Below, piece after piece: positions 6,234 through 17,363 of a DNA stretch of 25,571 nucleotides; position 1 is the stretch's first letter, and the number at the start of each line of letters is the position of its first letter. The stretch covers positions 1-25,571 of the IMG/VR virus record IMGVR_UViG_3300017969_000125; one strand, given 5' to 3'. Under the pieces are notes generated by a model that saw only the letters and a program-made list of their open reading frames with translations, was not told where the DNA came from and did not search any database. The DNA comes from a virus. Position numbers and translations under genes: made by a program.

Positions 6234-6397
6234 TTTGACTCCGTAAAATGTGCATCTAGGTGTTCTTCGAGTTCTTCTAGAGCATTAAGTTTTTCGGATC
6301 CATCAGCATCACTCCCCAACATTTCGCTGTAGTAATACAAAGCATCTGCTAGAAGAGATCTTTGTTCATCGGTAATAGTACAGTTAAGTTTATACAT
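6230..6397 (-). CDS. Very small acidic helical protein, 55 aa
   Basis: Unassigned. 55 residues beginning MYKLNCTITDEQRSLLADAL, with an acidic second half (GSDADGSEKLNALEELEEHL). It looks like two amphipathic helices. I chose ATG 6397, which overlaps the stop of the oxygenase-like gene by eight bases; a frame extension to 6508 lies within that gene. Its own stop overlaps the next ATG as ATGA. Function unknown. Confidence 0.7.
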   Translation of the reverse strand: MYKLNCTITDEQRSLLADALYYYSEMLGSDADGSEKLNALEELEEHLDAHFTESK

Positions 6398-6944
6398 TCT
6401 GGTCAGCGATAGGGATGTTAAATGCAACAATGGACCTAGGAATGTCAGAGTACGATGGTGGGCATTCATGGAGAATTGTAGACGGGAATAGAATAATATC
6501 CCCCTCATTCACCTCAGGTTGATAACGTTCAATGGTGCCAAAGAACGGGTTAGGTAGTGGTGAATAAAACCTTGTACTCTGGTGATGTTCCTTATCAAAA
6601 TCTAGATAAAGAATTGCGGAAAGATTCCCAAACCCATGATTATGTAGGGGATGAGAATCAGCACCAACATACATCTGTGACCACATTTGCCACTCTTCGG
6701 GAGGTTCTACTTTGATTCCTGAATTGTCCAGGAAATAAGATAGTTCCTCCCTGAGTTCAGCAACGAAGGTCACTAAGTACGGTGGTCTATTATTATACTT
6801 GAAATAATCTGAATAACAAATATCTATCCTATTTTCTTCAGGATTAAGACCAACAATGTCCTTAATCCTTTGCTTTCTCTCTTGCCAATTAGGGATAGAG
6901 ATTTTATAGAAAGAGATGGAAAAGAATGGCAGTTGTTCTATCAT
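6390..6944 (-). CDS. Putative 2-oxoglutarate/Fe(II) oxygenase, 184 aa
   Basis: A double-stranded beta-helix protein resembling the phage 2OG-Fe(II) oxygenase family with an H-x-H metal pair. Visible: SHPLHNHGFGNLSAILYLDF (H101 and H103, followed by the strand L-S-A-I-L-Y-L), then GDIILFPSTILHECPPS with H159 as third iron ligand, and R170 in PRSIVAFNIPI as 2-oxoglutarate anchor. Such enzymes hydroxylate proteins, nucleobases or small molecules; the substrate here is unknown. The N-terminal 80 residues look like a helical cap. Start ATG 6944 is fixed by a strong AGGAGG seven bases upstream. It shares ATGA with the 42-residue gene before it. Confidence 0.8.
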   Translation of the reverse strand: MIEQLPFFSISFYKISIPNWQERKQRIKDIVGLNPEENRIDICYSDYFKYNNRPPYLVTFVAELREELSYFLDNSGIKVEPPEEWQMWSQMYVGADSHPLHNHGFGNLSAILYLDFDKEHHQSTRFYSPLPNPFFGTIERYQPEVNEGDIILFPSTILHECPPSYSDIPRSIVAFNIPIADQNV

Positions 6945-7069
6945 TTCTTTTTCCTCCTCTTACTTTTATGTGGGTGTTTTTTGAGGTCTTTTTTAAGATC
7001 CTGAAGGAACTTAATATGTTTCTGTGGCGTACTCAGGAACGACCTAAGTTCCTTCGGAATCTCAGTCAT
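6941..7069 (-). CDS. Tiny basic protein, 42 aa
   Basis: Unassigned 42-residue protein. It starts MTEIPKELRSFLSTPQKHIK, then becomes highly basic, ending HKSKRRKKK. The Lys/Arg-rich end suggests binding to nucleic acid or to acidic lipid. ATG 7069 overlaps the upstream stop by eight bases, and its own stop shares ATGA with the oxygenase start. The coding sequence of its basic end (AAGAGGAGGAAA) also provides the strong ribosome site for the oxygenase, so the composition of the end may partly reflect that dual use. Confidence 0.65.
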   Translation of the reverse strand: MTEIPKELRSFLSTPQKHIKFLQDLKKDLKKHPHKSKRRKKK

Positions 7070-7487
7070 GATCGGTAGGAAATGGTTCGGGGATTTCTAC
7101 AATTTGACCATAAGAATCACCCCAGGTTTGGGTATTGTAACAGAACCACTCGCCATTGTCAAAAACGTAGGCGTATTCTCCACCACAATCAGTAGACTGT
7201 TCGAGGTATTCTGTGAGAGATTCTGCAACTTGAGGAGGAGTAAGTTCATCCCCACGCATAGTATAATAAAGAGGACGATCACCACCAAGAGGTTCATTAT
7301 TGAACCCAGAGTTAGTGTAACAAGAAGACATATCGCCACCATCAATTAGATCGGTGACTGACTCTTTAGTATTGTAATGCCTTTCCAACATACGACCCAA
7401 CCACTCAGGATAACCATCCCAGTGATGATAAACAGAAACAATAGAATCGTCTGCAAGTTTGATGCCGATTCGTGCGTTAGTGCTCAT
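7062..7487 (-). CDS. Conserved-looking phage protein, 141 aa, first gene of long operon
   Basis: Not assigned to a named family. It begins MSTNARIGIKLADDSIVSVY, followed by HHWDGYPEWLGRML (21-34), a pattern I recall from cyanophage and other phage proteins. The second half is acidic and aromatic (YAYVFDNGEWFCYNTQTWGD) and ends EIPEPFPTDHD. It appears a compact alpha/beta protein with several Trp residues (DGYPEWLG, GEWFCY). ATG 7487 lies 10 bases after AAAGGA in the cassette at 7495-7520, making it the first gene of a 14-gene operon ending at the terminator near 4299. Confidence 0.8.
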   Translation of the reverse strand: MSTNARIGIKLADDSIVSVYHHWDGYPEWLGRMLERHYNTKESVTDLIDGGDMSSCYTNSGFNNEPLGGDRPLYYTMRGDELTPPQVAESLTEYLEQSTDCGGEYAYVFDNGEWFCYNTQTWGDSYGQIVEIPEPFPTDHD

Positions 7488-7494
7488 TAGGTGT

Positions 7495-7520
7495 GATTCC
7501 TTTGACTCTTTTAATATACA
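7495..7520 (-). promoter_or_regulatory. Promoter-leader cassette, copy 4
   Basis: The minus strand reads TGTATATTAAA then AGAGTCAAAGGAATC. TATATT (7513-7518) occupies the place of AATACT in the other copies and is the best -10 of the four. AAAGGA is 10 bases before ATG 7487. A GCGCC-loop-GGCGC hairpin (7529-7542) sits where a -35 would be. Confidence 0.65.
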
Positions 7521-7528
7521 GGGTAGAG

Positions 7529-7542
7529 GCGCCTCATGGCGC
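7529..7542 (-). promoter_or_regulatory. GC hairpin just upstream of the -10 of cassette 4
   Basis: GCGCC (7529-7533) pairs with GGCGC (7538-7542) across a four-base loop. It is placed about ten bases upstream of the TATATT -10, over the expected -35 region. It lacks a T-run, so it may be a protein-binding site or part of a terminator that works with another factor. Confidence 0.4.
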
Positions 7543-7548
7543 GTGATG

Positions 7549-7572
7549 TGTGCAGGTTATTCAACTGTCACA
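7549..7572 (-). repeat. 24-base bulged-hairpin repeat, copy A
   Basis: The minus strand begins TGTGACAGTT and ends AACCTGCACA, with GAAT-type loop sequence between. It matches 10071-10094 at 23 of 24 positions. The arms can pair as TGTG-(A)-CAGTT with AA-(C)-CTG-CACA, leaving single-base bulges on each side. The stop codon of 7557-7805 lies within the element. Confidence 0.6.
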
Positions 7573-7805
7573 TCAAACTGGAGGTCAGCGAGTTCTTCGT
7601 CTGTCATTCCAGTAATATCATCCATAAACATGATCTCATCATCCCAACATTCATCGAGATCATCATCACCAATTAGGAACATTTCTTGTGCGATTGCTCT
7701 AGCATCCGCATATTTATCATTGTCCAATAGATCATTCAATCGTTTGGAGATCACCGTGTCGATGACATCCAGGCAACGTGCGCGAGACAGTTCGAGTTCA
7801 TCCAT
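7557..7805 (-). CDS. Acidic helical phage protein, 82 aa
   Basis: Unassigned. The first half is helical and mixed charge (ELSRARCLDVIDTVISKRLN then LLDNDKYADARAIAQEMF); the second half is very acidic (IGDDDLDECWDDEIMFMDD) and ends TDEELADLQFDVTVE. No membrane segment. The negative stretch may bind a basic partner, for instance the lysine-rich protein at 8221-8634 encoded by the same operon, but this is speculation. ATG 7805 overlaps the upstream stop by one base (TGATG). Last gene of the 10011-7557 unit. Confidence 0.7.
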   Translation of the reverse strand: MDELELSRARCLDVIDTVISKRLNDLLDNDKYADARAIAQEMFLIGDDDLDECWDDEIMFMDDITGMTDEELADLQFDVTVE

Positions 7806-7990
7806 CAGAGAGTTTCCTTAAGTGAGTGGTAAATTACGTCGCAGATTGCCAACTGATCTTGTATTGCGTCGGCATCTGGTTTGATTCGAGTATGTTGAAG
7901 GACAGCAAGTTTAACCTCTGCCTGTATCAAAGTGCGGAGGAGATCAAGAGTCTCCTCCTTGAGTAAAACAGTCTTGAAGTCAATACTCAC
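7805..7990 (-). CDS. Small helical protein, 61 aa (GTG start)
   Basis: Unassigned, all-helical 61-residue protein: SIDFKTVLLKEETLDLLRTL, then IQAEVKLAVLQHTRIKPDAD and AICDVIYHSLKETL. Heptad-like leucines suggest a helical hairpin or coiled coil. It starts with GTG at 7990, which shares GTGA with the stop of the upstream gene; there is no alternative ATG near the N-terminus. The stop overlaps the next ATG as TGATG. Fifth gene in the helicase operon. Confidence 0.7.
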   Translation of the reverse strand: MSIDFKTVLLKEETLDLLRTLIQAEVKLAVLQHTRIKPDADAIQDQLAICDVIYHSLKETL

Positions 7991-8199
7991 TTCTCAACTT
8001 TCCAATCAGAGTTACCTTTTTCTGGCACCCAGAAGAAGTAACCACCATTGAGAGACTTGAGGAAAACATGATTCATTCCCTCATGCATCTTCTCACACTC
8101 AACAAAACAAGTATGGAAGAGATCCATCTCATTTGCAAAGCGATTCTTTGCCTTGCGGGAGAGCGGAGTGACAAAGAGTTTCTTAGTTTTAGTGGTCAT
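7987..8199 (-). CDS. Small basic phage protein, 70 aa
   Basis: Unassigned. The N-terminus is basic (MTTKTKKLFVTPLSRKAKNR), followed by a Cys/His-containing stretch (MDLFHTCFVECEKMHEGMNH) and a beta-like C-terminus (GGYFFWVPEKGNSDWKVEK). Such endings resemble small domains that cap a beta sheet, but no family is recognised. ATG 8199 has an AGAGAGGA site close upstream. The 21-base gap to the lysine-rich gene upstream is otherwise featureless. Confidence 0.7.
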   Translation of the reverse strand: MTTKTKKLFVTPLSRKAKNRFANEMDLFHTCFVECEKMHEGMNHVFLKSLNGGYFFWVPEKGNSDWKVEK

Positions 8200-8220
8200 G
8201 TTCCTCTCTTGATTACCTTG

Positions 8221-8634
8221 TTATTGTAATGCATCCAGCAACGGATTCCCAGTGGACTGTGCCACTTTGTTGGACTGTCCACTAGATTTTTTCTTGGGTT
8301 TCGTGGTTCCCTTGGTGGCACTGGGTTTCTTGGTCTGAGATCCCTTTGCCTTACTAGGCGTTTTCGCTTTTTTCTGTGATTTCTGTGCGGCGGGGGTAGT
8401 AGGTCGTTTCTTGCGGGGAGATTTCCCTTTTTTGTATTTTTCTACTTTACTCATGGCACTTTGGAATGTGCGTGATACATCACTCAGCACTTTCCCCTCG
8501 TGGATGATAACCCACTCCTTGTTACCAATAACAGGAATCACCGCCCACATGCCATCTGGTGAGACATAATCTCTCACACAAACTGGATCTAATAAACTTG
8601 AGTTACAGTTGTAATACTTTTGCTCTCTACCCAT
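8221..8634 (-). CDS. Protein with histone H1-like lysine-rich tail, 137 aa
   Basis: Two-part protein. Residues 1-65 form a small mixed domain (MGREQKYYNCNSSLLDPVCV, then MWAVIPVIGNKEWVIIHEG with alternating hydrophobic residues, and a helix SRTFQSAMSKVEKYKKG). Residues 66-125 are a low-complexity tail of Lys, Pro, Ser, Ala and Thr (KKAKTPSKAKGSQTKKPSAT, TKPKKKSSG), like eukaryotic or bacterial H1-type tails. It ends with a hydrophobic tip NPLLDALQ. The tail most likely binds DNA or RNA without sequence preference; a role in condensing host DNA or phage DNA would fit, and so would an RNA-binding role. It overlaps 8627-8830 by eight bases. Not assigned to a named family. Confidence 0.75.
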   Translation of the reverse strand: MGREQKYYNCNSSLLDPVCVRDYVSPDGMWAVIPVIGNKEWVIIHEGKVLSDVSRTFQSAMSKVEKYKKGKSPRKKRPTTPAAQKSQKKAKTPSKAKGSQTKKPSATKGTTKPKKKSSGQSNKVAQSTGNPLLDALQ

Positions 8635-8830
8635 ACGTCCTCATAAACTCATCTAACGTGAAAATGTCATCGGTCGATGTCTCTTCTACCAACTCATCAT
8701 AGGATAGTTGCTGCAGCATATCTAGATGTTCTTCCATCGTTAAATCTTCATCAGGATCGAAATCATCGTGGCATAACCACTCATACTCCCGTTGAAGTGC
8801 ATCAATTAGTTGTTCTTTGGTGTAATTCAT
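8627..8830 (-). CDS. Acidic small protein, 67 aa
   Basis: Unassigned. Strongly acidic and helical: KEQLIDALQREYEWLCHDDF, then DPDEDLTMEEHLDMLQQL and YDELVEETSTDDIFTLDEF. No catalytic motif. Its stop overlaps the start of the lysine-rich protein and its start shares ATGA with the helicase stop, so it is made between an ATPase and a basic nucleic-acid-binding protein. It may be a partner of one of them; the sequence alone does not show which. Confidence 0.7.
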   Translation of the reverse strand: MNYTKEQLIDALQREYEWLCHDDFDPDEDLTMEEHLDMLQQLSYDELVEETSTDDIFTLDEFMRTYG

Positions 8831-10011
8831 CGTTTGATCTCTGAAATTGCAGGTTGACCTTGATTGAAGATGGTGTCTACAACTGCCTGCACTTTGCGGG
8901 CAGTGCTGATACCAACGTTGTCATAAGTTGGGATGGTGACTAGACCGTAAGTCTTAGATTCATCACCGAGACGAATCACCCGACCCACAGTTTGAGAGAT
9001 ACCAACATAATCCATATTACGAAGGAAAATAACAGATTGAAGACCATTAACATTGATGCCCTCCGACAGAATAGAGTGGTGAAGAACAATAAACTTCTTG
9101 GTGGAATCTTTACCCCAAGCATTCAGAGTTTCAAAGAACTTTTCGCGATTGACTTTGTGACCGTCAATGATAGCACCAGTCTTGGAAGTAATCACCATCC
9201 AAGAATAACCCTCTGCAGCAATCTTAGTGACAAAGTTAGTATTTTGGATCACATTGATGATCTGTTTGGTAGTGCGGGCACAGACAAGAACTTGGTTTTT
9301 GTTGTCATCAATGATCGTTTGATGCAGGTAGTCCGCATCACGTTGCCAGTTGTTCTTGTCCTTGGAAAGTGGAAGTTGACGGACATTAACTTTAGGAGGC
9401 AGAATATAACCACCCTCCACCAGTTCGGGTGCAGGAACCTGACAGATTACCTGACCATAAACATCAACGTCATTCATCCCTGGTTTCTTCACAGTCAAAG
9501 AATGTTTGGGAGTTGCAGTAAAGAAATAGCAACGATCTGCCTCATTGGAGAAGAACTCGGTAGGAGGAAAGAAGTTGCGAGTAATGCTGTTGTGTGCCTC
9601 ATCAAAATAGATCGTGTTGACCTCAATATCTGCATCCATTACACGGTGCAGAGAATGATAGGTAGTGAAGATCAGAACGTTCTCACCTGCGGTACGGGCA
9701 GTGTTAGCGAACAGGTGAATCTTCTCGGGGTTAGTAGAAGAGAAGTGATGAGTTTCACCACTGTGAACGTGCATCACATGAGTATATTTGGTGTCAATAA
9801 CTTCCAGAAACTCCTGACAGAGTTGTTCAGCAAGAAGGATACGAGGTGCTACAACAACTGTGGTGGTTCCTTTCTGAATAAGATCGTAAGTGGTCTGGGT
9901 ATCAACAATCATCGTCAATGTTTTACCGCCGCCAGTAGGAACAATGATCTGTCCTTTATGATAAGCAAACATACGATCAAGAATCTTTTCCTGATGAGGA
10001 CGGAGTTGCAT
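8827..10011 (-). CDS. Superfamily 2 DEAH-type helicase, 394 aa
   Basis: A nucleic-acid-dependent ATPase. Visible SF2 motifs: Q-like N-terminus MQLRPHQEKI, Walker A/motif I PTGGGKT (25-31), motif Ia APRILLAEQ (55-63), motif II DEAH (137-140), motif III FTATP (164-168), the second RecA domain with VLVCARTTKQ (241-250), motif V SEGINV (316-321) and motif VI QTVGRVIRLG (340-349) with the arginine fingers. The layout matches UvsW/RecG/type I restriction-like helicases; T4 UvsW (about 500 residues) has an extra N-terminal domain absent here. Likely role: branch migration, restart or R-loop removal during phage replication. I chose ATG 10011; a TTG at 10044 sits in the terminator T-run. Its stop shares ATGA with the next gene. 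Confidence 0.9.
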   Translation of the reverse strand: MQLRPHQEKILDRMFAYHKGQIIVPTGGGKTLTMIVDTQTTYDLIQKGTTTVVVAPRILLAEQLCQEFLEVIDTKYTHVMHVHSGETHHFSSTNPEKIHLFANTARTAGENVLIFTTYHSLHRVMDADIEVNTIYFDEAHNSITRNFFPPTEFFSNEADRCYFFTATPKHSLTVKKPGMNDVDVYGQVICQVPAPELVEGGYILPPKVNVRQLPLSKDKNNWQRDADYLHQTIIDDNKNQVLVCARTTKQIINVIQNTNFVTKIAAEGYSWMVITSKTGAIIDGHKVNREKFFETLNAWGKDSTKKFIVLHHSILSEGINVNGLQSVIFLRNMDYVGISQTVGRVIRLGDESKTYGLVTIPTYDNVGISTARKVQAVVDTIFNQGQPAISEIKR

Positions 10012-10042
10012 TGATGCGTTGCGTTCGATAAGATAATAATAC

Positions 10043-10070
10043 AAAAAAACGGGGGTCTTGGCGACCCCCG
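10043..10070 (-). terminator. Rho-independent terminator before helicase gene
   Basis: On the minus strand an 8-bp stem CGGGGGTC-gccaa-GACCCCCG is followed by TTTTTTT. It ends the short transcript of the acidic mini-gene 10098-10244. The helicase gene starts about 30 bases later, so helicase needs readthrough or its own start (TATTATTATCTTAT lies just after the T-run). Confidence 0.85.
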
Positions 10071-10094
10071 TGTGCAGGTTATTGAACTGTCACA
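10071..10094 (-). repeat. 24-base bulged-hairpin repeat, copy B
   Basis: Same element as 7549-7572 with one change in the loop (CAAT for GAAT). It lies between the stop of 10098-10244 and the terminator stem. The arms TGTG-(A)-CAGTT and AA-(C)-CTG-CACA are fully conserved. Confidence 0.6.
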
Positions 10095-10097
10095 CTA

Positions 10098-10244
10098 TCA
10101 GAACTGATTCAAGAGTTTGATAGTTTCAGAATCAAACTGTTCCCGAATGCCTGACTCAGGCAACCAATCTTCGGGGTTAGATTCCATCATCGAATCGTAG
10201 AGTTCATCAAAATCGCTGTACTCGTATTCAAATTCGTTGTTCAT
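10098..10244 (-). CDS. Acidic mini-protein, 48 aa
   Basis: Read directly from the sequence: 48 residues beginning MNNEFEYEYSDFDELYDSMM and ending IKLLNQF. More than a quarter of the residues are Asp or Glu, with Tyr and Phe interspersed; no basic patch, no membrane segment. Size and composition suit a small inhibitor or DNA mimic acting on a host enzyme, as is known for several phage early proteins, but nothing specific identifies a target. It has its own near-consensus sigma-70 promoter (10269-10297), a 24-base leader and its own terminator, so it is an isolated single-gene transcript, probably early and strong. Confidence 0.65.
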   Translation of the reverse strand: MNNEFEYEYSDFDELYDSMMESNPEDWLPESGIREQFDSETIKLLNQF

Positions 10245-10268
10245 GTGTTGTGTTTGGTGAACAATAAT

Positions 10269-10297
10269 AATATAGAGGTGATTGAGTCAGAAGTCAA
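10269..10297 (-). promoter_or_regulatory. Near-consensus sigma-70 promoter
   Basis: The minus strand has TTGACT (10292-10297), exactly 17 bases, then TATATT (10269-10274). This is one mismatch from each hexamer consensus with ideal spacing. It precedes the acidic mini-gene 10098-10244 and is the clearest host-type promoter in the window. Confidence 0.75.
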
Positions 10298-10311
10298 TGG
10301 GTTGGGGACAG

Positions 10312-10668
10312 TTATCCAAGTGGTGCAACTGCTGGATCAAGAGGAGCACCCGCACCCATATCAAAACGAGATTCAGCACGGAGAGATTCCAATTCTTGAC
10401 GCAATGCTCTTACTTCTGCCTCTACTTCTGCTGTTGTGCGTACAACATTGGTGATAGTTTGTTGATAACCGATCGCCTGTACCAATAGTTTCTCAAGGGC
10501 ACAAAGTCTACCATCAAGGTTACCAAGAGTCGCAGACATAATCTTGACTTGTTTATTCAGACGATCCATTCTTTGTGGACCATCTTCACCCTTACCAACA
10601 AATGTAGAACCAGCAGACTCCACTGGGGGATTTTGTTGTAGTAATTGCTTTTCTGGTTGTTCGCTCAT
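10312..10668 (-). CDS. Coiled-coil protein, 118 aa
   Basis: Unassigned. A Gln/Pro-rich N-terminus (MSEQPEKQLLQQNPPVESAG) precedes two helical stretches with heptad patterns: about 33-66 (MDRLNKQVKIMSATLGNLDG, ending ALEKLLVQA) and about 78-101 (TTAEVEAEVRALRQELESLR). The C-terminus is Gly/Ala/Pro-rich (FDMGAGAPLDPAVAPLG). Likely an oligomeric rod, perhaps a scaffold or minor virion part; the presence of a late-type promoter just upstream (10692-10699) supports late expression. ATG 10668 has no obvious ribosome site. Confidence 0.75.
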   Translation of the reverse strand: MSEQPEKQLLQQNPPVESAGSTFVGKGEDGPQRMDRLNKQVKIMSATLGNLDGRLCALEKLLVQAIGYQQTITNVVRTTAEVEAEVRALRQELESLRAESRFDMGAGAPLDPAVAPLG

Positions 10669-10691
10669 TTTACAATAATGACTTGACAGAT

Positions 10692-10699
10692 TATTTAGT
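10692..10699 (-). promoter_or_regulatory. Late-type promoter (ACTAAATA)
   Basis: Minus-strand ACTAAATA, sharing TAAATA with the T4 late consensus TATAAATA, 24 bases before ATG 10668 and just after the stop of 10703-11065. In T4 such sites are read by the late sigma gp55 with no -35 needed. Confidence 0.5.
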
Positions 10700-10702
10700 A
10701 TT

Positions 10703-11065
10703 CTAATTCCAAGGTCCAGTCTTGGCGAGTTTTACGGTAAACCAGATAATATAACCAACTACACCAGCAATAGGAATAATCGGCAGTGCCATGCAAATTG
10801 CCACAATAGGCACAATCACCAACCAACCTACAGCATGATCCAGGAAAGATGTGGATACAAGAGCAGCAGTGGAAATGTTTGGTCTAGGCGCACTCGGTGC
10901 ATCCTTGACAGGAATTGTAGCAGGATTAATGGAGACTACTTCACTCGCACCATAGGCACTTTTTGCCTGTGCAGCAGCATCACCACGCCAATGACTGGGA
11001 GACTCAAACTCTACCCTCGCCAGACGACCGCCAGCGGTCTTAATTAGTGCGTTCCAGAGTTTCAT
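10703..11065 (-). CDS. Membrane protein with C-terminal helical hairpin, 120 aa
   Basis: Unassigned. Residues 1-75 are soluble, with an N-terminal MKLWNALIKTAGGRLARVEF and a Ser/Ala/Pro linker (NPATIPVKDAPSAPRPN). Two hydrophobic helices follow at about 79-95 (VGWLVIVPIVAICMALP) and 97-113 (IPIAGVVGYIIWFTVKL), forming a hairpin that would place both ends on the same side. It could be a virion-associated or host-membrane protein; a two-span late protein between oxygenase and coiled-coil genes could also be a holin-like protein, but no lysis partner is visible. ATG 11065 lies 12 bases after the upstream stop. Confidence 0.75.
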   Translation of the reverse strand: MKLWNALIKTAGGRLARVEFESPSHWRGDAAAQAKSAYGASEVVSINPATIPVKDAPSAPRPNISTAALVSTSFLDHAVGWLVIVPIVAICMALPIIPIAGVVGYIIWFTVKLAKTGPWN

Positions 11066-11077
11066 GGGTCTTTTAAC

Positions 11078-11833
11078 CTACTCGCCTACTGTACCGCCTT
11101 CCTGATCCTTTGGCAACAGGTTAGGCAAATCCCAGAGTTGACCCTGACGCCAGGCAGAAACATGCTCCTCTCTTTCACTCTGATCGAGAAGTTGAACTCT
11201 CCAACCATAATCCCCGTTAGAAATTACGGTGGGCATCAAGTTCATAGCAACTGTGATGCGATTGGGGTGATTATTAACTTTGAATCCATGAATCATGTGT
11301 GATTCCCACAAGAACAATCTACCCTCTGCACCAGTTACACAATCAAATTGATTGTACCTGGTTTCTTTATGGTATGGAATCTGAAGTGCATTATATTGTG
11401 GATATGACATGCCCAATCTTGGTCTGCCAAAATATGTGTGGGAGTGTTTCTCTGGGTCAAAGTTGACATAATATAAGGCACTAATCACCGAATTAGAATG
11501 AAAATGTGGTGATTGATATCCACCTTCATTGCATATATTGATCCAACTATCTGTGACTTGCATTGTCTCTGGGAGGTAATATCCCATGACATTTGACATA
11601 AAGTCTTCGGCACAGTTTTCTACCCATGTTCTAAACCGTGAAAAACGATCATCTTGAATTACAGAATAGTGATCTATATGGGTCAACGAATGAGATCGTG
11701 GATTTTTTATGATTTCTCCGTCTTGCTGCTCAATTTCTGCCAAAAATAAAGATTTAACTTTATCATGAAATGGACACTCCTGAACATACAAAGGAGATGG
11801 AAGTAAGTCAACTACAGTCATAACTTCAGGCAT
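11078..11833 (-). CDS. Putative 2-oxoglutarate/Fe(II) oxygenase, 251 aa
   Basis: Resembles the phage 2OG-Fe(II) oxygenase family with W-x-N and H-x-H signatures: DSWINICNEGGYQSPHFHSN (W97, N99, H110, H112), the strand SALYYVNFD (118-126), then GRLFLWESHMIHGFKVN with H182 as third iron ligand, and R192 in NRITVAMNLMP as the 2-oxoglutarate anchor. This is close to the pattern of phage proteins annotated as putative prolyl or protein hydroxylases. Substrate unknown. The start may be ATG 11833, which abuts a terminator T-run, or ATG 11821 (MTVVDLLPSPLYVQ), neither with a clear ribosome site. A late-type promoter lies at 11861-11868. Confidence 0.85.
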   Translation of the reverse strand: MPEVMTVVDLLPSPLYVQECPFHDKVKSLFLAEIEQQDGEIIKNPRSHSLTHIDHYSVIQDDRFSRFRTWVENCAEDFMSNVMGYYLPETMQVTDSWINICNEGGYQSPHFHSNSVISALYYVNFDPEKHSHTYFGRPRLGMSYPQYNALQIPYHKETRYNQFDCVTGAEGRLFLWESHMIHGFKVNNHPNRITVAMNLMPTVISNGDYGWRVQLLDQSEREEHVSAWRQGQLWDLPNLLPKDQEGGTVGE

Positions 11834-11857
11834 AAAAAAAGGGAGGTTGAACCTCCC
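11834..11857 (-). terminator. Terminator of the DUF262-HNH gene
   Basis: The minus strand has GGGAGGTT-C-AACCTCCC, a perfect palindrome at 11841-11857, then TTTTTTT (11834-11840) that runs into ATG 11833. It lies downstream of the late-type promoter at 11861-11868, so that promoter would start transcription inside the hairpin. Confidence 0.85.
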
Positions 11858-11860
11858 TCG

Positions 11861-11868
11861 TATTTAGA
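11861..11868 (-). promoter_or_regulatory. Late-type promoter (TCTAAATA)
   Basis: Minus-strand TCTAAATA, identical to sites at 13520-13527 and 24173-24180, placed directly after the TGA stop of 11870-13207 and 28 bases before ATG 11833. Probable start of the 11833-10703 late transcript. Confidence 0.6.
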
Positions 11869-11869
11869 A

Positions 11870-13207
11870 TCACTGGATGGGGTTACGTCCCAGAGACAGA
11901 TTATCTCCCGCTTCCTGTACAGCACAGTTGGCATCATCGGTAGAACCGCCATCAGCGTGGGGTTCAATGTGTCCACCGTGGTATGCGGTAGGGTCAAAGA
12001 GTCGTCCCTTGTCGATGGTCTTACCTTCGGGAGTTACCCAGTTCTGCCTCACTGCAGCACTGAACTTCTGTTCCTTGCTGAAGTTACGCTTGGGGTCCAG
12101 TTGAGTGCAGAACTCTTCAGGATTCCAGGTCTTCGTAACAATCTCACGACGGAGTTTGTTGAAGGAAGACTCACGCGAACGCATGAGTTCCTTATACACT
12201 GCCTCACGACCGTTGTTGTAAGTGTAGGTAGTGGGGTCAGTTAGGTTCATTGCGTGGGTCTTCATGTAACCTTCGATGAAACCATCTCGGTTACTGATGC
12301 TGAAGTTGTTGTCCTTCAGATCCTTCACCAGTGCAAACAAGTCAAGAACACAGTTCTTGTTAGGCAGTGCCTTCAGATCATCACCCATGAAGTTGATGAA
12401 GGACTTGAAGTCCGACTCGAACTTGTGAATGAGTTTGTCCTCAGTGGACCCGTATGCATAAGCACTCCACAGGGACTTGTCGGAGATGGTGGTATTCAGA
12501 CCACCGAAGTACACCAGTGCGAGACCAGCAATGAAGTCGTCAACCTTGCGACGGTTGATGTCTGCCTTGGAGAAGAAGTTCTTCAGTACAGACTCATACT
12601 CGGTGGCAAGATTGCGGATGGTGTTAGAGAAGTCGGAGATGACTGCGTTACGCTTCTCTGGACCATTCAGAGAGATACCGTCATTCATACGAATGAACAG
12701 TTCAGAAAGTTGATCACGAGTCGCAGAAGTAATGATCTCGATGGTAACAACTGCGTTCGAGAATGCCTGCATGATCACATTAGGCAGAGTCTCGAACATG
12801 TCGTTCTCCCCCTCAATGATCTCCACAACTTGACCAGCAATGTCATAGAATCCAGGTTGGATTCCAAACTCTCCGCGAATAAACTCCGCGAGAGTAGTGA
12901 CACGGTTGTTGGAGTCGATGTTGAGGTAATCAACAGCGCGACCTTTCCATCCCTGATAATACTGTTTGTCTGCGGCAACCTTAGAAGTAACCTGGCAGGC
13001 ATCTGTAGATGCCAGGATAAACTTAGAGGGTGCCATTCCCAGGATCACCGAAGTGATGTAGGAACGTTTGTTGTCGTTTGCCCAGCGAACTCGGGACTGG
13101 AAAGAATAGTCCGCACGGGTCTTGGGTTGCATCTCGGCGAGGAAAGACTCCACCGAATACTTGTAAAAGTCCGATTGAATAGGACCGAATGTTGCTTTGT
13201 TTGACAT
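11870..13207 (-). CDS. DUF262 + HNH nuclease-like protein, 445 aa
   Basis: Two-domain protein of the GmrSD/DUF262 type. The N-terminal part has the DUF262 (ParB/sulfiredoxin-like NTPase) pattern: SFQSRVRWANDNKRSYITSV, ILGMAPSKFILAS, then IDSNNRVTTLAEFI (97-110) in the place of the D-G-x-Q-R motif, and LSELFIRMNDGISLNGPEKR (168-186). The C-terminus is an HNH nuclease core: YHGGHIEPHADGGSTDDANC (H413, H417, N427) followed by GDNLSLGRN (N436). In bacteria such proteins cut modified or foreign DNA; in a phage it could act on host or rival phage DNA, or as superinfection exclusion. The D-S-N-N-R form lacks the usual Gly and Gln, so NTPase activity is uncertain. Codons look more GC-rich than in neighbours. 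Operator-like repeats precede the start. Confidence 0.85.
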   Translation of the reverse strand: MSNKATFGPIQSDFYKYSVESFLAEMQPKTRADYSFQSRVRWANDNKRSYITSVILGMAPSKFILASTDACQVTSKVAADKQYYQGWKGRAVDYLNIDSNNRVTTLAEFIRGEFGIQPGFYDIAGQVVEIIEGENDMFETLPNVIMQAFSNAVVTIEIITSATRDQLSELFIRMNDGISLNGPEKRNAVISDFSNTIRNLATEYESVLKNFFSKADINRRKVDDFIAGLALVYFGGLNTTISDKSLWSAYAYGSTEDKLIHKFESDFKSFINFMGDDLKALPNKNCVLDLFALVKDLKDNNFSISNRDGFIEGYMKTHAMNLTDPTTYTYNNGREAVYKELMRSRESSFNKLRREIVTKTWNPEEFCTQLDPKRNFSKEQKFSAAVRQNWVTPEGKTIDKGRLFDPTAYHGGHIEPHADGGSTDDANCAVQEAGDNLSLGRNPIQ

Positions 13208-13247
13208 CGTGTTTAGTGTCGTACTACAATGTGTCGGTTTTGAGCAA
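13208..13247 (-). promoter_or_regulatory. Probable promoter of the DUF262-HNH gene
   Basis: Minus strand, downstream of the repeats: TTGCTC as a possible -35 and TACGAC about 18 bases later as a poor -10, then CACTAAACACG and the ATG. No strong ribosome site is visible. The weak core promoter next to repeated sites suggests activator or repressor control. Confidence 0.35.
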
Positions 13248-13294
13248 CGGAGTGTGCCGTAGCAACGGATATTTGTTGCCGCGGAGTGTGCCGT
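13248..13294. repeat. Two 13-bp direct repeats upstream of the DUF262-HNH gene
   Basis: CGGAGTGTGCCGT occurs at 13248-13260 and 13282-13294, start-to-start distance 34 bases (about three helical turns). Between them lie AGCAACGG (also at 13243-13250 and 13261-13268) and a small inverted repeat GCAAC (13262-13266) / GTTGC (13275-13279). The block sits 41-87 bases before ATG 13207, in the place of a promoter, and looks like a multi-site operator. Confidence 0.6.
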
Positions 13295-13327
13295 CGGTCA
13301 TCCACCAACACAAGTAGAATAACAGAG

Positions 13328-13498
13328 TCAGGATCCCTTGGCAACCCCTGTCTGCATTTCCTCCAAAACACTGATGGCACCTTGCAATCGGAGAAATTCT
13401 TCTTTCTTCTCGTTAAAATCTTTCTCCATTTGGAGCAACTCATCTCTCAATTTGAGTGCCTTGTCTACTAATTCTTTGTACTTTGTTTCTGTGTTCAT
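13328..13498 (-). CDS. Small coiled-coil protein, 56 aa
   Basis: Read directly: 56 residues beginning MNTETKYKELVDKALKLRDE and continuing LLQMEKDFNEKKEEFLRLQG. It is a single long helix with heptad spacing of Leu and Val, ending SVLEEMQTGVAKGS. Probably a homo-oligomeric coiled coil. The late-type promoter at 13520-13527 lies 22 bases upstream, so it is likely a late protein, possibly a chaperone or scaffold for fibre assembly, though nothing specific shows this. It is transcribed divergently from the glycine-rich gene. ATG 13498 has a weak ribosome site. Confidence 0.75.
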   Translation of the reverse strand: MNTETKYKELVDKALKLRDELLQMEKDFNEKKEEFLRLQGAISVLEEMQTGVAKGS

Positions 13499-13519
13499 AA
13501 TAAACTCTTTCTCGGCGTA

Positions 13520-13527
13520 TATTTAGA
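13520..13527 (-). promoter_or_regulatory. Late-type promoter, minus arm of bidirectional site
   Basis: Minus-strand TCTAAATA, 22 bases before ATG 13498. It overlaps the plus-strand site at 13526-13533; together they form TATTTA-GA-TAAATA, an inverted repeat with a two-base centre. Confidence 0.6.
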
Positions 13528-13533
13528 TAAATA
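13526..13533 (+). promoter_or_regulatory. Late-type promoter, plus arm of bidirectional site
   Basis: Plus-strand GATAAATA, 27 bases before ATG 13560 of the glycine-rich gene. It differs from TATAAATA at one position. It is the only plus-strand promoter candidate in front of the only plus-strand gene. Confidence 0.6.
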
Positions 13534-13559
13534 ACGGCAGGCGTCATATTGTACCATAC

Positions 13560-14738
13560 ATGTCAGAGTTAAATCAATCAATCTTGAGACAACTCGCAAC
13601 ATCTGCAAAGGATGACATTGTTGCAGTTCCAGAAGAGAATCAGAAGATTGTTTCTGTGACAAATGCTGATAATGGATCGGAAATGGTAGCATCAGATGTG
13701 CCTGGTGAAAGTGTAATGTCAGGTGTTATCGGAAACGGTCAGATCTCAAAGGCAACTGATAATTACTTTGCCAGTGGTTCGATCTACATGAGTCAGTTAA
13801 ACTCTACATTTGGTGGTGGAAATTACTTATCCTCCAAATATAGAGGTGGTAATGTTCCGAACTGTCAATATAACAATAATGTTCCCACTGGTGGACAGAT
13901 TTATTTCAGTAATTTCCGTGGGTCAACTAAAACAATCTATGCATATTGCAATGGAAACTTTGTACATCTCCAGGCAAGATGGGAGATTTATGGAGACACT
14001 GACTGGACTTCTCAGGCAAACAAAAAAATCATCTTTAGTGGTCATGCTGGATCCTATGACACTAATCCTGCACTGAGAATTAACAATAGTGGAGACTTGA
14101 ATGGTGCTCAAGTTGAACTTGTAGGTACAGGTACTCCTAGAATTGTTGGTCGTCCAGGAAATAATGGCGGTGGTGCTGGTAACAGTGGTCTACATATCGC
14201 AAGTGCTATCAAGATTCCCGATAGTATGTGGAATGGTCAATGGGCATCTGTAGGAATCTTTGGTGCTGGAGGTGGCGGAGGAAATGGCGGTAACGGTGGC
14301 AATGGTGGCAACGGTCAACACAGCGGTAGCGTCAGATGTAACGGTTGGTTCTGTAATGGAACAAAGAGAGAATGTAATGGTGATGGTGGTAACGGAGGAA
14401 ATGGTGGTAATGGTGGATCAGGTGGCAGAGGTAGGGGTTACGAATGGAACGGAAGTGTCTGGAATTTAGTATGGCCAGGTGCCTCTGGTGGTAATGGCGG
14501 AAACGGTGGAAATGGCAGAGCAGGAAATGGCGGAAACGGTGGAAATGGCGGCGGTGGAGGTGATCTCCAGAGTTATGGTTCTGGCGGTGGCGGTGGCAAC
14601 AGCGGCAATAGCGGAGGTTATGGTCAGCAAGGTTGCGGCGGTGGTCCTAACGGAGGAAACAGTGGTAATGGAGGCAACGGCGGAGGTCCAGGCGGCGGCA
14701 AAGCAAACTACTCCCACAATGGGTATCGTTATCAGTAA
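13560..14738 (+). CDS. Glycine-rich fibre-tip adhesin-like protein, 392 aa
   Basis: The only plus-strand gene. Residues 1-130 look like a phage structural head: GQISKATDNYFASGSIYMSQ, then PTGGQIYFSNFRGSTKTIYA (109-128), a G-x-I-x-F-S-x-F-x-G motif common in tail-fibre and structural proteins. Residues 130-235 are mostly beta strands. From about 235 the chain is Gly/Asn-rich (GGNGGNGGNGG runs at 240-252, 276-288, 309-331) interrupted by more complex loops with Cys and Trp (RCNGWFCNGTKREC 259-272; YEWNGSVWNLVWPG 294-307). This matches the plan of S16-type gp38 adhesins: polyglycine-II helices in a sandwich, with variable loops that touch the receptor. Likely role: host recognition at the tip of long fibres. 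GGN codons repeat in the DNA. Homology to gp38 is inferred from composition. Confidence 0.75.
   Translation: MSELNQSILRQLATSAKDDIVAVPEENQKIVSVTNADNGSEMVASDVPGESVMSGVIGNGQISKATDNYFASGSIYMSQLNSTFGGGNYLSSKYRGGNVPNCQYNNNVPTGGQIYFSNFRGSTKTIYAYCNGNFVHLQARWEIYGDTDWTSQANKKIIFSGHAGSYDTNPALRINNSGDLNGAQVELVGTGTPRIVGRPGNNGGGAGNSGLHIASAIKIPDSMWNGQWASVGIFGAGGGGGNGGNGGNGGNGQHSGSVRCNGWFCNGTKRECNGDGGNGGNGGNGGSGGRGRGYEWNGSVWNLVWPGASGGNGGNGGNGRAGNGGNGGNGGGGGDLQSYGSGGGGGNSGNSGGYGQQGCGGGPNGGNSGNGGNGGGPGGGKANYSHNGYRYQ
14240..14700 (+). repeat. GGN-codon tandem-like repeats in adhesin gene
   Basis: Imperfect repeats of GGTGGTAATGGC / GGCGGAAACGGT type (Gly-Gly-Asn-Gly units) make up much of this part. The high self-similarity offers many sites for slippage or recombination, which could change repeat number or swap loops. 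Confidence 0.7.
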
Positions 14739-14747
14739 TCCGATTGT

Positions 14748-15833
14748 TTAATGTGGTTCTGGACCATTAAGAGGTCCAACAAATCCATATGCAACGCGCA
14801 TAGAGTTGCCTTCATGTTCCGTAGATACTTGGAAGGTAGCAAATATATTTTCTGTACTGGTACTATTTTCCCAGTTGTTTAATTCTGGTGCCCAACCTTC
14901 GGGCAACCAAGAACAATTTTCTGTTGACTGGGCAATAGATGACAGGGAATCAATATGACATTGTTTGTAATACTGATACTTTGTAAAGTTATCTTGGGCA
15001 GTAGTGCCTGCTGGCGCATCTTTCTTCTTCTTGGGCAACACATTCTGACCAAACTTTTTCTGAACCCCGTTAGAATCAAATGTGATACTTACATTCACAT
15101 AGGTATTCTCATCAATATACAATGAGTCCATCACATCAATGGTATTACTTGTACTCAAATACATCTTAGTTCTCTTACTTCCAGCAACATTTGCGAGCAA
15201 GTCCTTCACTGTCCCGACATTATCATCATTTCTAACTAAGAGAATCTCCACACTATTTTTGAGACGATTGTGAATCAAATAAGTGGGTGACAAATCATAT
15301 GAATCTTTAAGTTCTGGATCGGCAAGATTATCAATACCAGAGAAAATACTTTCCAGTTCGGATGTATTCGGATTGCCTACTAAATCCCCAATCAAATTAC
15401 ACAAGTGTTTAATACTTGCAGGGAACATTGGGAAGATTTCAAAGTCAATATGTTCTTCCACAATTTCGGTGGGATTTGCTGCATCAAATGCAAGAAATCT
15501 GTTACCCATGAAGTAGTTAAAGATGGGGTTTCTATGAATCACATCTTTACCATATGGTTGCCACTCTGTAATACCTGTAGGTGCTTTAAAAAAGAACCCA
15601 TAAAGAGTATCAATATTGACGTTTTTGAGTCCAGAAGTAGGAGACTGAGTGTATTGTCGGACAAAAATACATCCACTATCCCTTCTTTTCGAACCACGTT
15701 CATTCCATGCCTTTGAAAAGAGAGATGGATTGGCATCAACAATCTTTCTGACGTTCTCTACATCAGTTTGAGAAACTAAGTGCGGATAGTCATTCGACTT
15801 GACTAATTTTTCGAGCGATCCAAAATCTACCAT
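14748..15833 (-). CDS. Uncharacterised 361-aa protein in adhesion module
   Basis: Not recognised. The protein is soluble. An N-terminal helical part (GSLEKLVKSNDYPHLVSQTD) is followed by segments with alternating hydrophobic residues (DSGCIFVRQYTQSPTSG, then IDTLYGFFFKAPTGITEWQP), a helical middle (IKHLCNLIGDLVGNPNTSEL), and later beta-like strands (TYVNVSITFDSNGVQKKFGQ). A basic patch PKKKKDAPAG lies at about 266-275. The tail ends FVGPLNGPEPH. It overlaps the 2OG oxygenase upstream by seven bases and is the last gene of the 17160-14748 unit. It ends nine bases from the end of the convergent adhesin gene with no terminator between. It could be a modifying enzyme or a fibre-assembly factor, but nothing in the sequence decides it. 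Confidence 0.8.
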   Translation of the reverse strand: MVDFGSLEKLVKSNDYPHLVSQTDVENVRKIVDANPSLFSKAWNERGSKRRDSGCIFVRQYTQSPTSGLKNVNIDTLYGFFFKAPTGITEWQPYGKDVIHRNPIFNYFMGNRFLAFDAANPTEIVEEHIDFEIFPMFPASIKHLCNLIGDLVGNPNTSELESIFSGIDNLADPELKDSYDLSPTYLIHNRLKNSVEILLVRNDDNVGTVKDLLANVAGSKRTKMYLSTSNTIDVMDSLYIDENTYVNVSITFDSNGVQKKFGQNVLPKKKKDAPAGTTAQDNFTKYQYYKQCHIDSLSSIAQSTENCSWLPEGWAPELNNWENSTSTENIFATFQVSTEHEGNSMRVAYGFVGPLNGPEPH

Positions 15834-16381
15834 TGTTCTCCTTTATCGTAAGCAAACCATACAACGACTGAGTACCTTGTTCCTGATGTAACCTTGGCGA
15901 CCTCATGTGGATAAACCAAAGCACTTGGATAAACATGAATGGAGTTTTTATGTTTATCTAACGTATAGTTTTTCCAGAAGACCATTTCGCCACCTTCATA
16001 GTCATCATTGATTTGAAATGATGCAGTAACTGATGCAGCGTCGGCATCCATATCTGTATGATATGAAAGATATCCTCCTTCTGGGTATTTACATAACCAG
16101 TAACCACTATATTTATCGAAGACATCTCCATCTGGAAGGCACCAACGATAGTCATTCAATATCTTTGGCATCGTTCTTTTGAAGGCAGCATGAACAATGT
16201 CAAATACTTCACCCTCAGTTAAAAGAACCTGTTGCCTATGTCCCTTGAGAGAATAGTTTGCATCCTCTGCAATATCTTCAAAGTCTGGAAACTCAAAGTT
16301 CTTTAATAACTTCAGAAGTCGAAAGTATTCATCAGCATCTAATACATCATGATAATCATGTATATGATCCGAGAGATTCAT
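15827..16381 (-). CDS. 2OG-Fe(II) oxygenase, prolyl 4-hydroxylase-like, 184 aa
   Basis: Clear double-stranded beta-helix dioxygenase. Motifs: GGYLSYHTDMDADAASVTAS contains the H-x-D iron pair (H108, D110), the next strand gives FQINDDYEGGEMVFW (122-136, the usual L-N-x-x-x-Y-x-G-G-E-x-x-F pattern of prolyl 4-hydroxylases), YPSALVYPHEVAKVTSGTRY supplies the distal H159 and R169 binds 2-oxoglutarate. The family hydroxylates proline or other residues in proteins. The N-terminal 95 residues are a helical cap. ATG 16381 shares ATGA with the stop of the upstream oxygenase, so the two are co-translated. The small size is normal for phage members. Confidence 0.9.
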   Translation of the reverse strand: MNLSDHIHDYHDVLDADEYFRLLKLLKNFEFPDFEDIAEDANYSLKGHRQQVLLTEGEVFDIVHAAFKRTMPKILNDYRWCLPDGDVFDKYSGYWLCKYPEGGYLSYHTDMDADAASVTASFQINDDYEGGEMVFWKNYTLDKHKNSIHVYPSALVYPHEVAKVTSGTRYSVVVWFAYDKGEQW

Positions 16382-17160
16382 AAGAAATATTCTTTCGCAA
16401 CGAATCCCGAAACAGAAACTCTAAGTCTATCCTTGAAATCACTAGAAGCAAACTTTGCAGAGTGCCAGAGATATGATGGATAGAGAACTAATCTATTGTA
16501 TTTCATTGGAACTTCATGAATCTCTGTCCACACAGGATCCATACATTTGTAGTCCAAAGGAACCATGTCAGTAGATTGTTCCAGGAAATCATATTCCCAT
16601 TCTTTGTAATTCCAGTAAGGTTCTTCTCTTTTGAATTTCACAAATACATGTTCCATGTTTATGCAACCAGCAGTTTTATGAGAATAAAATGCTGTACCAC
16701 CTGCATAATTATCACCTTCTCCAGTATCAACTTCCTTGTTCATGTAGAGAACAAACGCAAACATGGCAGGATCAACGTGAGGTTGAATCAGTGCCTTTGG
16801 AAATTGTAGACTACTATCAATGGCATTTACCTGAAATGCATACCTAAGATTCTCTGGATCAGGTATCTCGAAATCGGTAAATTTATCAATGAAATATCCT
16901 ATTGCATTTCTAACTTCAGGCAACATCATGAAGATTTGCCCCGTATATCCTGGGATAGAACTACCACCAGCATCAAACTGTTCCCTATTCTTTTCAAGAG
17001 GAACTTTATTTACAATATTCTCCAAGAAATAATCAGGATCTTCCAGAAAATTATCTACAACAATAACTGGATGATTTTGATCTTTTCCGATTCTTACGGA
17101 AACATATTGCATGTCATTGCTAATTTTAATCTCACCAGTATCAATCAAATTCAAAGACAT
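16378..17160 (-). CDS. Putative 2OG oxygenase (DUF6445-like), 260 aa
   Basis: Resembles DUF6445-type proteins, a branch of the 2OG-Fe(II) oxygenase fold. Visible: HPVIVVDNFLEDPDYFLENI (30-49), SSIPGYTGQIFMM (67-79), IQPHVDPAMFAFVLYMN with the H-x-D pair (H128, D130), GGTAFYSHKTAG (154-165), and NRLVLYPSYLWHSAKFASS with H233, then R245/R247 in KDRLRVSVSGF as 2-oxoglutarate anchor. Substrate unknown. ATG 17160 has AGAGGAT immediately upstream; an extension to 17208 would run into the preceding gene. A late-type motif AATAAATA lies 19 bases upstream. Next gene shares ATGA. Confidence 0.8.
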   Translation of the reverse strand: MSLNLIDTGEIKISNDMQYVSVRIGKDQNHPVIVVDNFLEDPDYFLENIVNKVPLEKNREQFDAGGSSIPGYTGQIFMMLPEVRNAIGYFIDKFTDFEIPDPENLRYAFQVNAIDSSLQFPKALIQPHVDPAMFAFVLYMNKEVDTGEGDNYAGGTAFYSHKTAGCINMEHVFVKFKREEPYWNYKEWEYDFLEQSTDMVPLDYKCMDPVWTEIHEVPMKYNRLVLYPSYLWHSAKFASSDFKDRLRVSVSGFVAKEYFL

Positions 17161-17178: not shown

Positions 17179-17186
17179 ATTTATTC
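17179..17186 (-). promoter_or_regulatory. Late-type promoter (AATAAATA)
   Basis: Minus-strand AATAAATA overlaps the stop codon of 17181-17363 and lies 19 bases before ATG 17160. It shares the TAAATA core with the other late sites and may give separate expression of the oxygenase genes. Confidence 0.4.
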
Positions 17187-17363
17187 GAACCCTCCAGCGA
17201 GTTTGCACTCCAAAATAGTTCTATAAAGATGTGTCTGAAGATCTCTCAATCTTTCAGAAAGATCCTCCTCTAGTCCATCAGTCTCCAAATGTACGGAGAC
17301 TGATTTATAGAGAAGGCAGATATCTTCTAGATCAAAATCAATAATGAAATCGGGTTCGTCCAT
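17181..17363 (-). CDS. Small acidic helical protein, 60 aa
   Basis: Unassigned. A strongly acidic N-terminus (MDEPDFIIDFDLEDICLLYK) precedes a helix with charged heptads (GLEEDLSERLRDLQTHLYRT) and the end ILECKLAGGFE. The ATG at 17363 directly abuts the TAA stop of the giant fibre gene, suggesting coupled translation with it. A position behind a fibre gene is typical for fibre-assembly chaperones, which are also often small and coiled-coil, but this is not proven by the sequence. Confidence 0.75.
   Translation of the reverse strand: MDEPDFIIDFDLEDICLLYKSVSVHLETDGLEEDLSERLRDLQTHLYRTILECKLAGGFE

What the first reader, a model, noticed from the sequence alone, without database searches (positions are those of the whole stretch)
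6390..17160. Four different 2OG-Fe(II) oxygenase-like genes, two of them next to fibre and adhesin genes
6390-6944, 11078-11833, 15827-16381 and 16378-17160 have distinct H-x-H or H-x-D...H...R patterns, so they are not simple duplicates. Two overlap by ATGA between the fibre and the adhesin. Related enzymes hydroxylate Pro, Asn or Asp in proteins. The GGN-rich adhesin offers dozens of Asn, the fibre offers Pro and Asn, so hydroxylation of the fibres during assembly is a testable idea; it could change receptor binding or stability.
Basis: inference. Interest (0 to 1): 0.75.

Follow-up and report, generated by a model that had tools for sequence, protein, structure and literature searches.

The report
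Fibre-linked oxygenase tailoring operon, cyanophage
In this marine cyanobacterial virus, two intact oxygen-using enzyme genes sit in one operon behind the tail-fibre gene with a protein that looks like a prenyl-transferase, and the block recurs unbroken in dozens of diverged relatives beside the same adhesin, which suggests that these viruses chemically modify the proteins they use to grip their host.

Summary
The four genes are real, all on the minus strand, with intact iron-binding residues conserved across relatives. They belong to three families: PF13759 (6390, 11078), PF13640 (15827) and DUF6445 (16378). An AlphaFold2 model of the last matches 2OG hydroxylases.

The fibre, 16378, 15827 and a 361-aa protein (14748-15833) form one operon that converges on the adhesin. 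In 47 of 47 assessable distinct contigs the two oxygenases, the 361-aa gene and the adhesin stay together. The neighbouring HNH gene is present in only 21 of 40. Searching from the adhesin gives the same answer.

The 361-aa protein has no sequence relatives of known function. Its confident model (pLDDT 89) matches only ABBA aromatic prenyltransferases among the 50 best PDB hits. A second, different operon (short tail fibre, 2OG, fibre chaperone, 2OG, 2OG, hypothetical, probable prenyltransferase-fold protein, helicase) was complete in 16 of 16 contigs. In other cyanophages halogenases occupy the same interval.

Best reading: a tailoring cassette for the receptor-binding apparatus. The GGN asparagines are not conserved and are poor candidate targets. 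Substrate, chemistry and prenyl transfer are unproven. The 6390 gene shows no fibre link.

The parts
17364..24143 (-). Tail fibre, 2259 aa, with an S74-type chaperone-like C-terminus; first gene of the operon
   Evidence: phrog_529 E=0; N-terminal part found in 460 cyanophage records
17181..17363 (-). 60-aa ORF (phrog_628, unknown); its ATG follows the fibre stop directly
16378..17160 (-). DUF6445 2OG-Fe(II) oxygenase (P4); H128xD130, H233, R247
   Evidence: PF20043 4.2e-14; AF2 pLDDT 89.6; PDB fold hits include PHD2, P4H, Asn hydroxylase and Lys hydroxylase/halogenase; triad intact in 25/25 fibre-downstream copies
15827..16381 (-). P4H-like 2OG-Fe(II) oxygenase (P3); H108xD110, H159, R169; start overlaps the P4 stop by ATGA
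   Evidence: PF13640 4.4e-11; triad and R invariant in 24/24; PDB sequence hits PKHD-type hydroxylases, then PHD2
14748..15833 (-). 361-aa protein (U361) with predicted ABBA/PT-barrel (aromatic prenyltransferase-like) fold; overlaps the P3 stop by 7 bases
   Evidence: AF2 pLDDT 89.3, pTM 0.89; 50 of 50 top PDB fold hits are ABBA prenyltransferases, best E 1.9e-6; no sequence hit to a known family
13560..14738 (+). Glycine-rich adhesin-like protein, convergent with the operon; GSI..S.L motif, conserved Cys motif, GGxGG repeats
   Evidence: relatives in S-SSM7 and Sf-FS3 at the same place; conservation
11870..13207 (-). GmrSD_N/HNH-like gene, variable neighbour used as control (present in 21 of 40 relatives)
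   Evidence: weak PF03235 match
11078..11833 (-). PF13759 2OG-Fe(II) oxygenase (P2), between adhesin and helicase; H110xH112, H182, R192
   Evidence: motif 51/51; P2-type copies in this interval in 40/40 contigs with room
8827..10044 (-). DNA helicase (UvsW-like), landmark at the far end of the island
   Evidence: phrog_16 1.7e-62
6390..6944 (-). PF13759 2OG-Fe(II) oxygenase (P1), beyond the helicase; H101xH103, H159, R170; no fibre link found
   Evidence: motif in 62-65 of 65

Best explanation
The fibre-P4-P3-U361 operon with the convergent adhesin is a tailoring and assembly cassette for the phage's receptor-binding apparatus. Shown: P4 and P3 carry intact 2OG-oxygenase active sites; they are strictly linked to the fibre, U361 and the adhesin across diverged cyanophages; U361 has a predicted PT-barrel fold; a second fibre operon has the same plan. 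Inferred: P4 and P3 hydroxylate specific residues of the fibre or adhesin late in infection, while these polypeptides fold in the cytoplasm; U361 acts on the same proteins, possibly transferring or binding an isoprenoid on an aromatic residue. Likely targets are conserved positions, such as adhesin N116, P120, N144 or P181 or the Cys/aromatic motif near C271-C283 (numbered as in the 403-residue stop-to-stop frame, 11 more than from the ATG), not the variable GGN asparagines. The result would alter stability or receptor binding of the fibre tip.
For: Operon: fibre stop to next ATG without a gap; ATGA and 7-base overlaps downstream. Linkage: from P3, 48 distinct contigs or genomes at 44-99% identity: P4 47/47, U361 47/47, adhesin 47/47, fibre 39/39 with room (three P4 'n' marks are an overlap-window artefact). 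From the adhesin: U361 57/59, P3 55/57, P4 49/49 loci with room, duplicates included. Control: HNH neighbour 21/40. Of 460 phage records with this fibre type, only S-SSM7, S-SSM6a and Sf-FS3 carry the long adhesin match, and exactly these carry close P4, P3 and U361. Catalysis: residues invariant; dN/dS 0.03-0.41 for P2, P3, P4 and U361 pairs. Folds. Second operon: (16/16). The same interval holds Trp halogenases in S-WAM1, S-SZBM1, syn9 and S-SRM01; in S-SRM01 the halogenase lies between the fibre and a Trp-rich adhesin that matches the adhesin HMM. 2OG-type genes lie within 15 kb of the fibre 37 times in 104, against 15.4 expected, in 7 genomes.
Against: No biochemical or proteomic evidence for any substrate. 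Linkage may reflect block inheritance in one phage clade plus a plastic region near the fibre. The enrichment is absent in P-SSM5 and rests on one fibre definition and an arbitrary 15-kb range. S-SRM01 has an adhesin relative without P3, P4 or U361, and L141 shows an adhesin away from the cassette. Most phages with this fibre N-terminus lack close P4 and P3. U361's TM-scores are only 0.36-0.50, with no sequence support.
Confidence: 0.55

Rival explanations
1. P4 and P3 are ordinary auxiliary metabolic genes acting on host proteins, metabolites or 2-oxoglutarate levels; they sit behind the fibre because cyanophage genomes accept cargo there.
For: The literature reads cyanophage 2OG genes this way (1-5 per genome, up to 24; PMC9602691, PMC9964418). 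Insertions occur in the same region (L159 with a gnd-like gene; L021).
Against: Cargo should come and go as the HNH gene does (21/40), yet P4, P3, U361 and adhesin do not (47/47). A 2OG gene lies between a short tail fibre and a fibre chaperone in every lineage of the second operon seen.
Confidence: 0.25
2. P4, P3 and U361 are structural or assembly proteins (minor virion parts or chaperones) that kept an enzyme fold but need no catalysis.
For: PHROGs calls the DUF6445 family 'minor coat protein'. The DUF6445 paralogue upstream of the fibre has lost iron ligands in many lineages, so non-catalytic roles do occur.
Against: The downstream P4 and P3 keep every ligand and the 2OG-binding Arg in all sequences, unlike the upstream paralogue.
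Confidence: 0.1
3. The oxygenases act on DNA or nucleotides (AlkB-like repair or base modification), as once proposed for syn9 prolyl-4-hydroxylase genes near uvsX and uvsY.
For: Published suggestion (PMC2984593); a helicase gene closes the island.
Against: P3 and P4 are in the fibre operon, not with repair genes; nearest solved relatives of P3 are PKHD-type hydroxylases and PHD2, and P4's best fold hits are mostly amino-acid or protein hydroxylases; the DNA-oxygenase match to P3 is below cut-off.
Confidence: 0.07

Closest known systems
PF13640 prolyl-4-hydroxylase-like / PKHD-type hydroxylases (PiuC, Sbal_3634) and HIF prolyl hydroxylase PHD2
   Same: P3 has the motif, length and profile match
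   Different: Substrate unknown; phage-encoded, in a tail-fibre operon
DUF6445 (PF20043) / phrog_1644 'minor coat protein'
   Same: P4 is a member by profile
   Different: Model and residues show a 2OG oxygenase; 'minor coat protein' is not supported by this evidence
Salmonella phage S16 / T2-type gp38 polyglycine adhesin
   Same: Glycine-rich GGxGG segments with variable residues between, beside a long fibre (gp38 description in PMC7917993)
   Different: No Pfam or PHROG gp38 match; encoded convergently; extra N-terminal region in most relatives
ABBA aromatic prenyltransferases (AmbP1, AmbP3, CloQ, NphB, DMATS family)
   Same: Predicted alternating helix-pair and strand-hairpin barrel; all 50 best PDB fold hits; basic residues on strands at 59, 112, 201, 259 and Tyr at 78, 349
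   Different: No sequence similarity; TM 0.36-0.50; activity untested; no other case in viruses was found in the held literature
Cyanophage 2OG-Fe(II) oxygenase genes in general
   Same: Known to be numerous and diverse (PMC9602691, PMC9964418)
   Different: No paper found links a subset to fibre and adhesin operons

Membership tests
2OG-Fe(II) oxygenase superfamily (P1-P4) | HxD/H...H iron ligands plus distal Arg, conserved | tested here: met
2OG-Fe(II) oxygenase superfamily (P4, DUF6445) | double-stranded beta-helix fold | tested here: met
   AF2 model hits 2OG enzymes as a class, best E 2.2e-5; TM modest, 0.24-0.44 by query
2OG-Fe(II) oxygenase superfamily (P1-P4) | 2OG- and Fe(II)-dependent turnover | not testable with these tools
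   needs purified enzyme
Protein (prolyl/asparaginyl) hydroxylase | protein substrate hydroxylated | not testable with these tools
   only genetic linkage to fibre and adhesin
ABBA aromatic prenyltransferase (U361) | PT-barrel fold of helix-flanked beta hairpins | tested here: met
   predicted model only
ABBA aromatic prenyltransferase (U361) | sequence or profile similarity to a characterised member | tested here: not met
   no relevant Pfam, NCBIfam or PDB sequence match
ABBA aromatic prenyltransferase (U361) | diphosphate-binding basic residues and Tyr shield in the barrel | tested here: inconclusive
   conserved basic and Tyr positions on strands, but their placement in the barrel was not checked in 3D
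gp38-type polyglycine adhesin | GGxGG segments beside a fibre gene | tested here: met
gp38-type polyglycine adhesin | gp38 N-terminal domain that docks on gp37 | tested here: not met
   no Pfam or PHROG match; the S-SRM01 relative is annotated gp37-gp38 adhesin tip complex by its depositors

The most novel reading that the evidence does not exclude
Cyanophages run a multi-enzyme tailoring pathway on their own receptor-binding proteins, with hydroxylation by 2OG oxygenases, prenylation by an ABBA-fold enzyme and, in other lineages, tryptophan halogenation, encoded as exchangeable sets between the fibre gene and the uvsW-like helicase. This would be like natural-product tailoring applied to a phage adhesin.
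Probability: 0.22. Interest if true: 0.93.

Novelty: new variant of a known kind. Interest (0 to 1): 0.72.

Why it matters
Cyanophages carry up to two dozen 2OG oxygenase genes whose roles have not been investigated; they are usually filed as auxiliary metabolic genes. Tying a defined subset to fibre, adhesin and fibre-chaperone genes gives each a concrete candidate substrate. If right, phage host recognition would depend on post-translational chemistry as well as adhesin sequence, and could depend on cellular 2-oxoglutarate, iron and oxygen. It would also point to where to look for the function of the PT-fold proteins and of phage tryptophan halogenases.

Tried and rejected
GGN asparagines as target: rejected, the aligned GGN columns are Asn in about 3-45% of 31 relatives. 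All four genes as one fibre system: rejected for P1. Homology of U361 to the S-PM2-type 290-aa protein (phrog_4851): no profile similarity. BFVD lists a 290-aa S-RIM44 protein as the only good viral fold match, and the one 290-aa CDS in the 4,018-193,149 part of one S-RIM44 genome is phrog_4851; the accession itself could not be checked. Homology of U361 to the S-PM2 fibre chaperone: none. Cellular relatives of U361: none found (A8 not searchable). The seven-sequence DUF6445 alignment A1 gave no searchable pattern, so A6 was used. The DUF6445 profile found no relevant PDB sequence relative. Literature: cyanophage plus prolyl hydroxylase, 2OG plus virion, ABBA prenyltransferase plus phage, viral prenyltransferase: nothing linking these to fibres.
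Full report
WHAT THE WINDOW IS. The window is a 25.6-kb IMG/VR virus record. Its best matches are Synechococcus T4-like phages and its fibre is the cyanophage type phrog_529. A near-identical contig (IMGVR_UViG_3300004369_000026, 99% in P3) extends it. Host cyanobacterial: inferred from relatives.

THE OBSERVATION. All four ORFs are present, on the minus strand. They belong to PF13759 (P1 6390, P2 11078), PF13640 (P3 15827) and DUF6445/PF20043 (P4 16378). Iron ligands and the distal Arg are conserved: 62-65 of 65 for P1, 51/51 for P2, 24/24 for P3, 25/25 for fibre-downstream P4. dN/dS is 0.03-0.41 in all P2, P3 and P4 pairs, some with saturated dS. The AlphaFold2 model of P4 (pLDDT 89.6) finds 2OG enzymes as a class, including HIF prolyl hydroxylase, P4H, a putative asparaginyl hydroxylase and lysine hydroxylase/halogenases.

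ANATOMY. Reading on the minus strand: fibre (2259 aa), a 60-aa ORF whose ATG follows the fibre stop, P4, P3 (ATGA overlap), a 361-aa protein U361 (7-base overlap). The glycine-rich adhesin-like gene lies on the other strand, converging on U361 with a 9-base gap. Beyond it come a GmrSD/HNH-like gene, P2, small genes, a UvsW-like helicase and, 1.9 kb further, P1.

CO-CONSERVATION. Starting from P3, 64 close loci were found in IMG/VR (44-99% identity, then a gap to 33-44%). With S-SSM7 and Sf-FS3 these reduce to 48 distinct ones. U361 and adhesin are present in 47/47 with room, fibre in 39/39, P2-type genes in 40/40. P4 is in 47/47; one search lists 47 P4-P3 gaps, and the three 'n' marks come from a too narrow overlap limit. 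The adhesin is always convergent. Starting instead from the adhesin (67 loci, not deduplicated), U361 is present in 57/59, P3 in 55/57, P4 in 49/49 with room. The two exceptions are L159, where a gnd-like gene follows the adhesin and the contig ends, and L141, where the adhesin lies elsewhere. The HNH neighbour is present in only 21/40, so local gene turnover is high and the block resists it. In annotated phages, the fibre N-terminus occurs in 460 records; the long adhesin match, close P4, close P3 and U361 occur together in S-SSM7 (two records), S-SSM6a and Sf-FS3.

U361. No relevant Pfam, NCBIfam or PDB sequence match. The AF2 model (28 sequences, pLDDT 89.3, pTM 0.89) shows five beta hairpins framed by helix pairs. 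All 50 best PDB fold matches are ABBA aromatic prenyltransferases, best E 1.9e-6, probability mostly 1.00, TM about 0.36-0.50. Basic residues on strands (59, 112, 201, 259) and Tyr 78 and 349 are conserved; this fits a diphosphate pocket but was not checked in three dimensions. The fold assignment is likely; prenyl transfer is a guess.

A SECOND OPERON WITH THE SAME PLAN. In S-PM2, S-H9-2, S-RIM32, S-RIM44, Sf-CH11 and Sf-FP1 the order is short tail fibre, 2OG, tail assembly chaperone (phrog_4697), 2OG, a further PF13640-type gene annotated 'DNA endonuclease V', hypothetical, a 290-aa protein (phrog_4851), sometimes another 2OG, helicase. In IMG/VR, 16/16 distinct contigs carry the three oxygenases and the chaperone upstream of phrog_4851; the last 2OG is optional (4/13). 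The only convincing viral fold match to U361 is a 290-aa S-RIM44 protein, almost certainly phrog_4851 by length. There is no detectable sequence homology, so the parallel is one of plan and probably fold.

OTHER TAILORING ENZYMES IN THE SAME INTERVAL. In syn9, S-WAM1 and S-SZBM1 the stretch behind the fibre holds tryptophan halogenases and 2OG genes, after tail-fibre-assembly genes in syn9 and S-WAM1. In S-SRM01 a halogenase with GxGxxG and WxWxIP motifs lies between the fibre genes and a Trp-rich adhesin that matches our adhesin HMM. Across seven cyanophage genomes 37 of 104 2OG-type genes lie within 15 kb of the fibre against 15.4 expected; P-SSM5 shows no such excess, and gene clustering makes the single-genome P values optimistic. 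A 2OG gene also sits directly upstream of the fibre in S-PRM1, S-8S53 and S-RIM44.

TARGET. The GGN idea fails: aligned GGN positions are Asn in about 3-45% of 31 relatives, which use Q, T, K, S, A or R there. Positions conserved in at least 90% include N116, P120, N144, P181, N186, four Cys, F275 and W307 (numbered in the 403-residue stop-to-stop frame used; subtract 11 for numbering from the ATG at 13560). These are better candidates; nothing here shows that any is modified.

WHAT IS SHOWN AND WHAT IS INFERRED. Shown: enzymes with intact sites; operon structure; linkage beyond that of a variable neighbour; predicted fold of P4 and U361; a second fibre operon. Inferred: that fibre or adhesin is the substrate; that U361 is an enzyme; any effect on receptor binding. 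The main rival is auxiliary metabolism with the genes parked near the fibre; strict linkage and the 2OG gene between fibre and chaperone argue against it but cannot exclude it.

LITERATURE. Cyanophage 2OG genes are described as numerous and functionally uninvestigated (PMC9602691, PMC9964418); one proposal was DNA repair (PMC2984593). No held paper found links them to fibres or reports a viral ABBA prenyltransferase.

Noticed in passing
L023:581-1291, L029:1272-1973, L033:142-840, L034:215-934, L027:375-1073, L019:762-1454: A second DUF6445 gene directly upstream of the fibre has lost the HxD and/or distal His in many lineages while others keep them: apparent repeated decay of an oxygenase into a non-catalytic protein.
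   Followed up: partly
L204:21630-24211 (S-SRM01): A tryptophan halogenase gene lies between tail-fibre genes and a Trp- and Cys-rich adhesin (motif CNWWGNCWWEASQW), suggesting the adhesin as its substrate.
   Followed up: partly
L208:6155-6664, L206:3491-4006 and many RefSeq cyanophage records: Genes annotated 'DNA endonuclease V' (phrog_274) and 'minor coat protein' (phrog_1644) match 2OG-oxygenase families (PF13640, DUF6445) and look like propagated misannotations.
   Followed up: partly
L217:6482-16661 (syn9), L214:7995-12604 (S-WAM1), L215:6983-11078 (S-SZBM1): The stretch behind the fibre is packed with halogenase, 2OG and cupin-type genes, an apparent tailoring island.
   Followed up: partly
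L021:11706-14139 and L159:11488-13248: Insertions between the cassette and the adhesin; in L159 it carries a 6-phosphogluconate dehydrogenase-like gene and a second ORF resembling glucose-6-phosphate dehydrogenase (by eye). Besides L054 these are the only interruptions seen there.
   Followed up: no
L141:4829-5299: An adhesin outside the usual cassette has, 1.8 kb downstream, an ORF that looks by eye like a JmjC/cupin protein (DPHHHDYHV), possibly another oxygenase.
   Followed up: no
window 13560-14738: The adhesin here and in L008-L010 lacks the N-terminal region of about 150 aa that most relatives have (about 390-400 against 525-580 aa ORFs).
   Followed up: no
window 11870-13207: GmrSD_N-like plus HNH-like gene inside the island, present in about half of relatives; GmrSD enzymes restrict modified DNA, so it may be a phage-borne restriction or homing gene.
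   Followed up: partly
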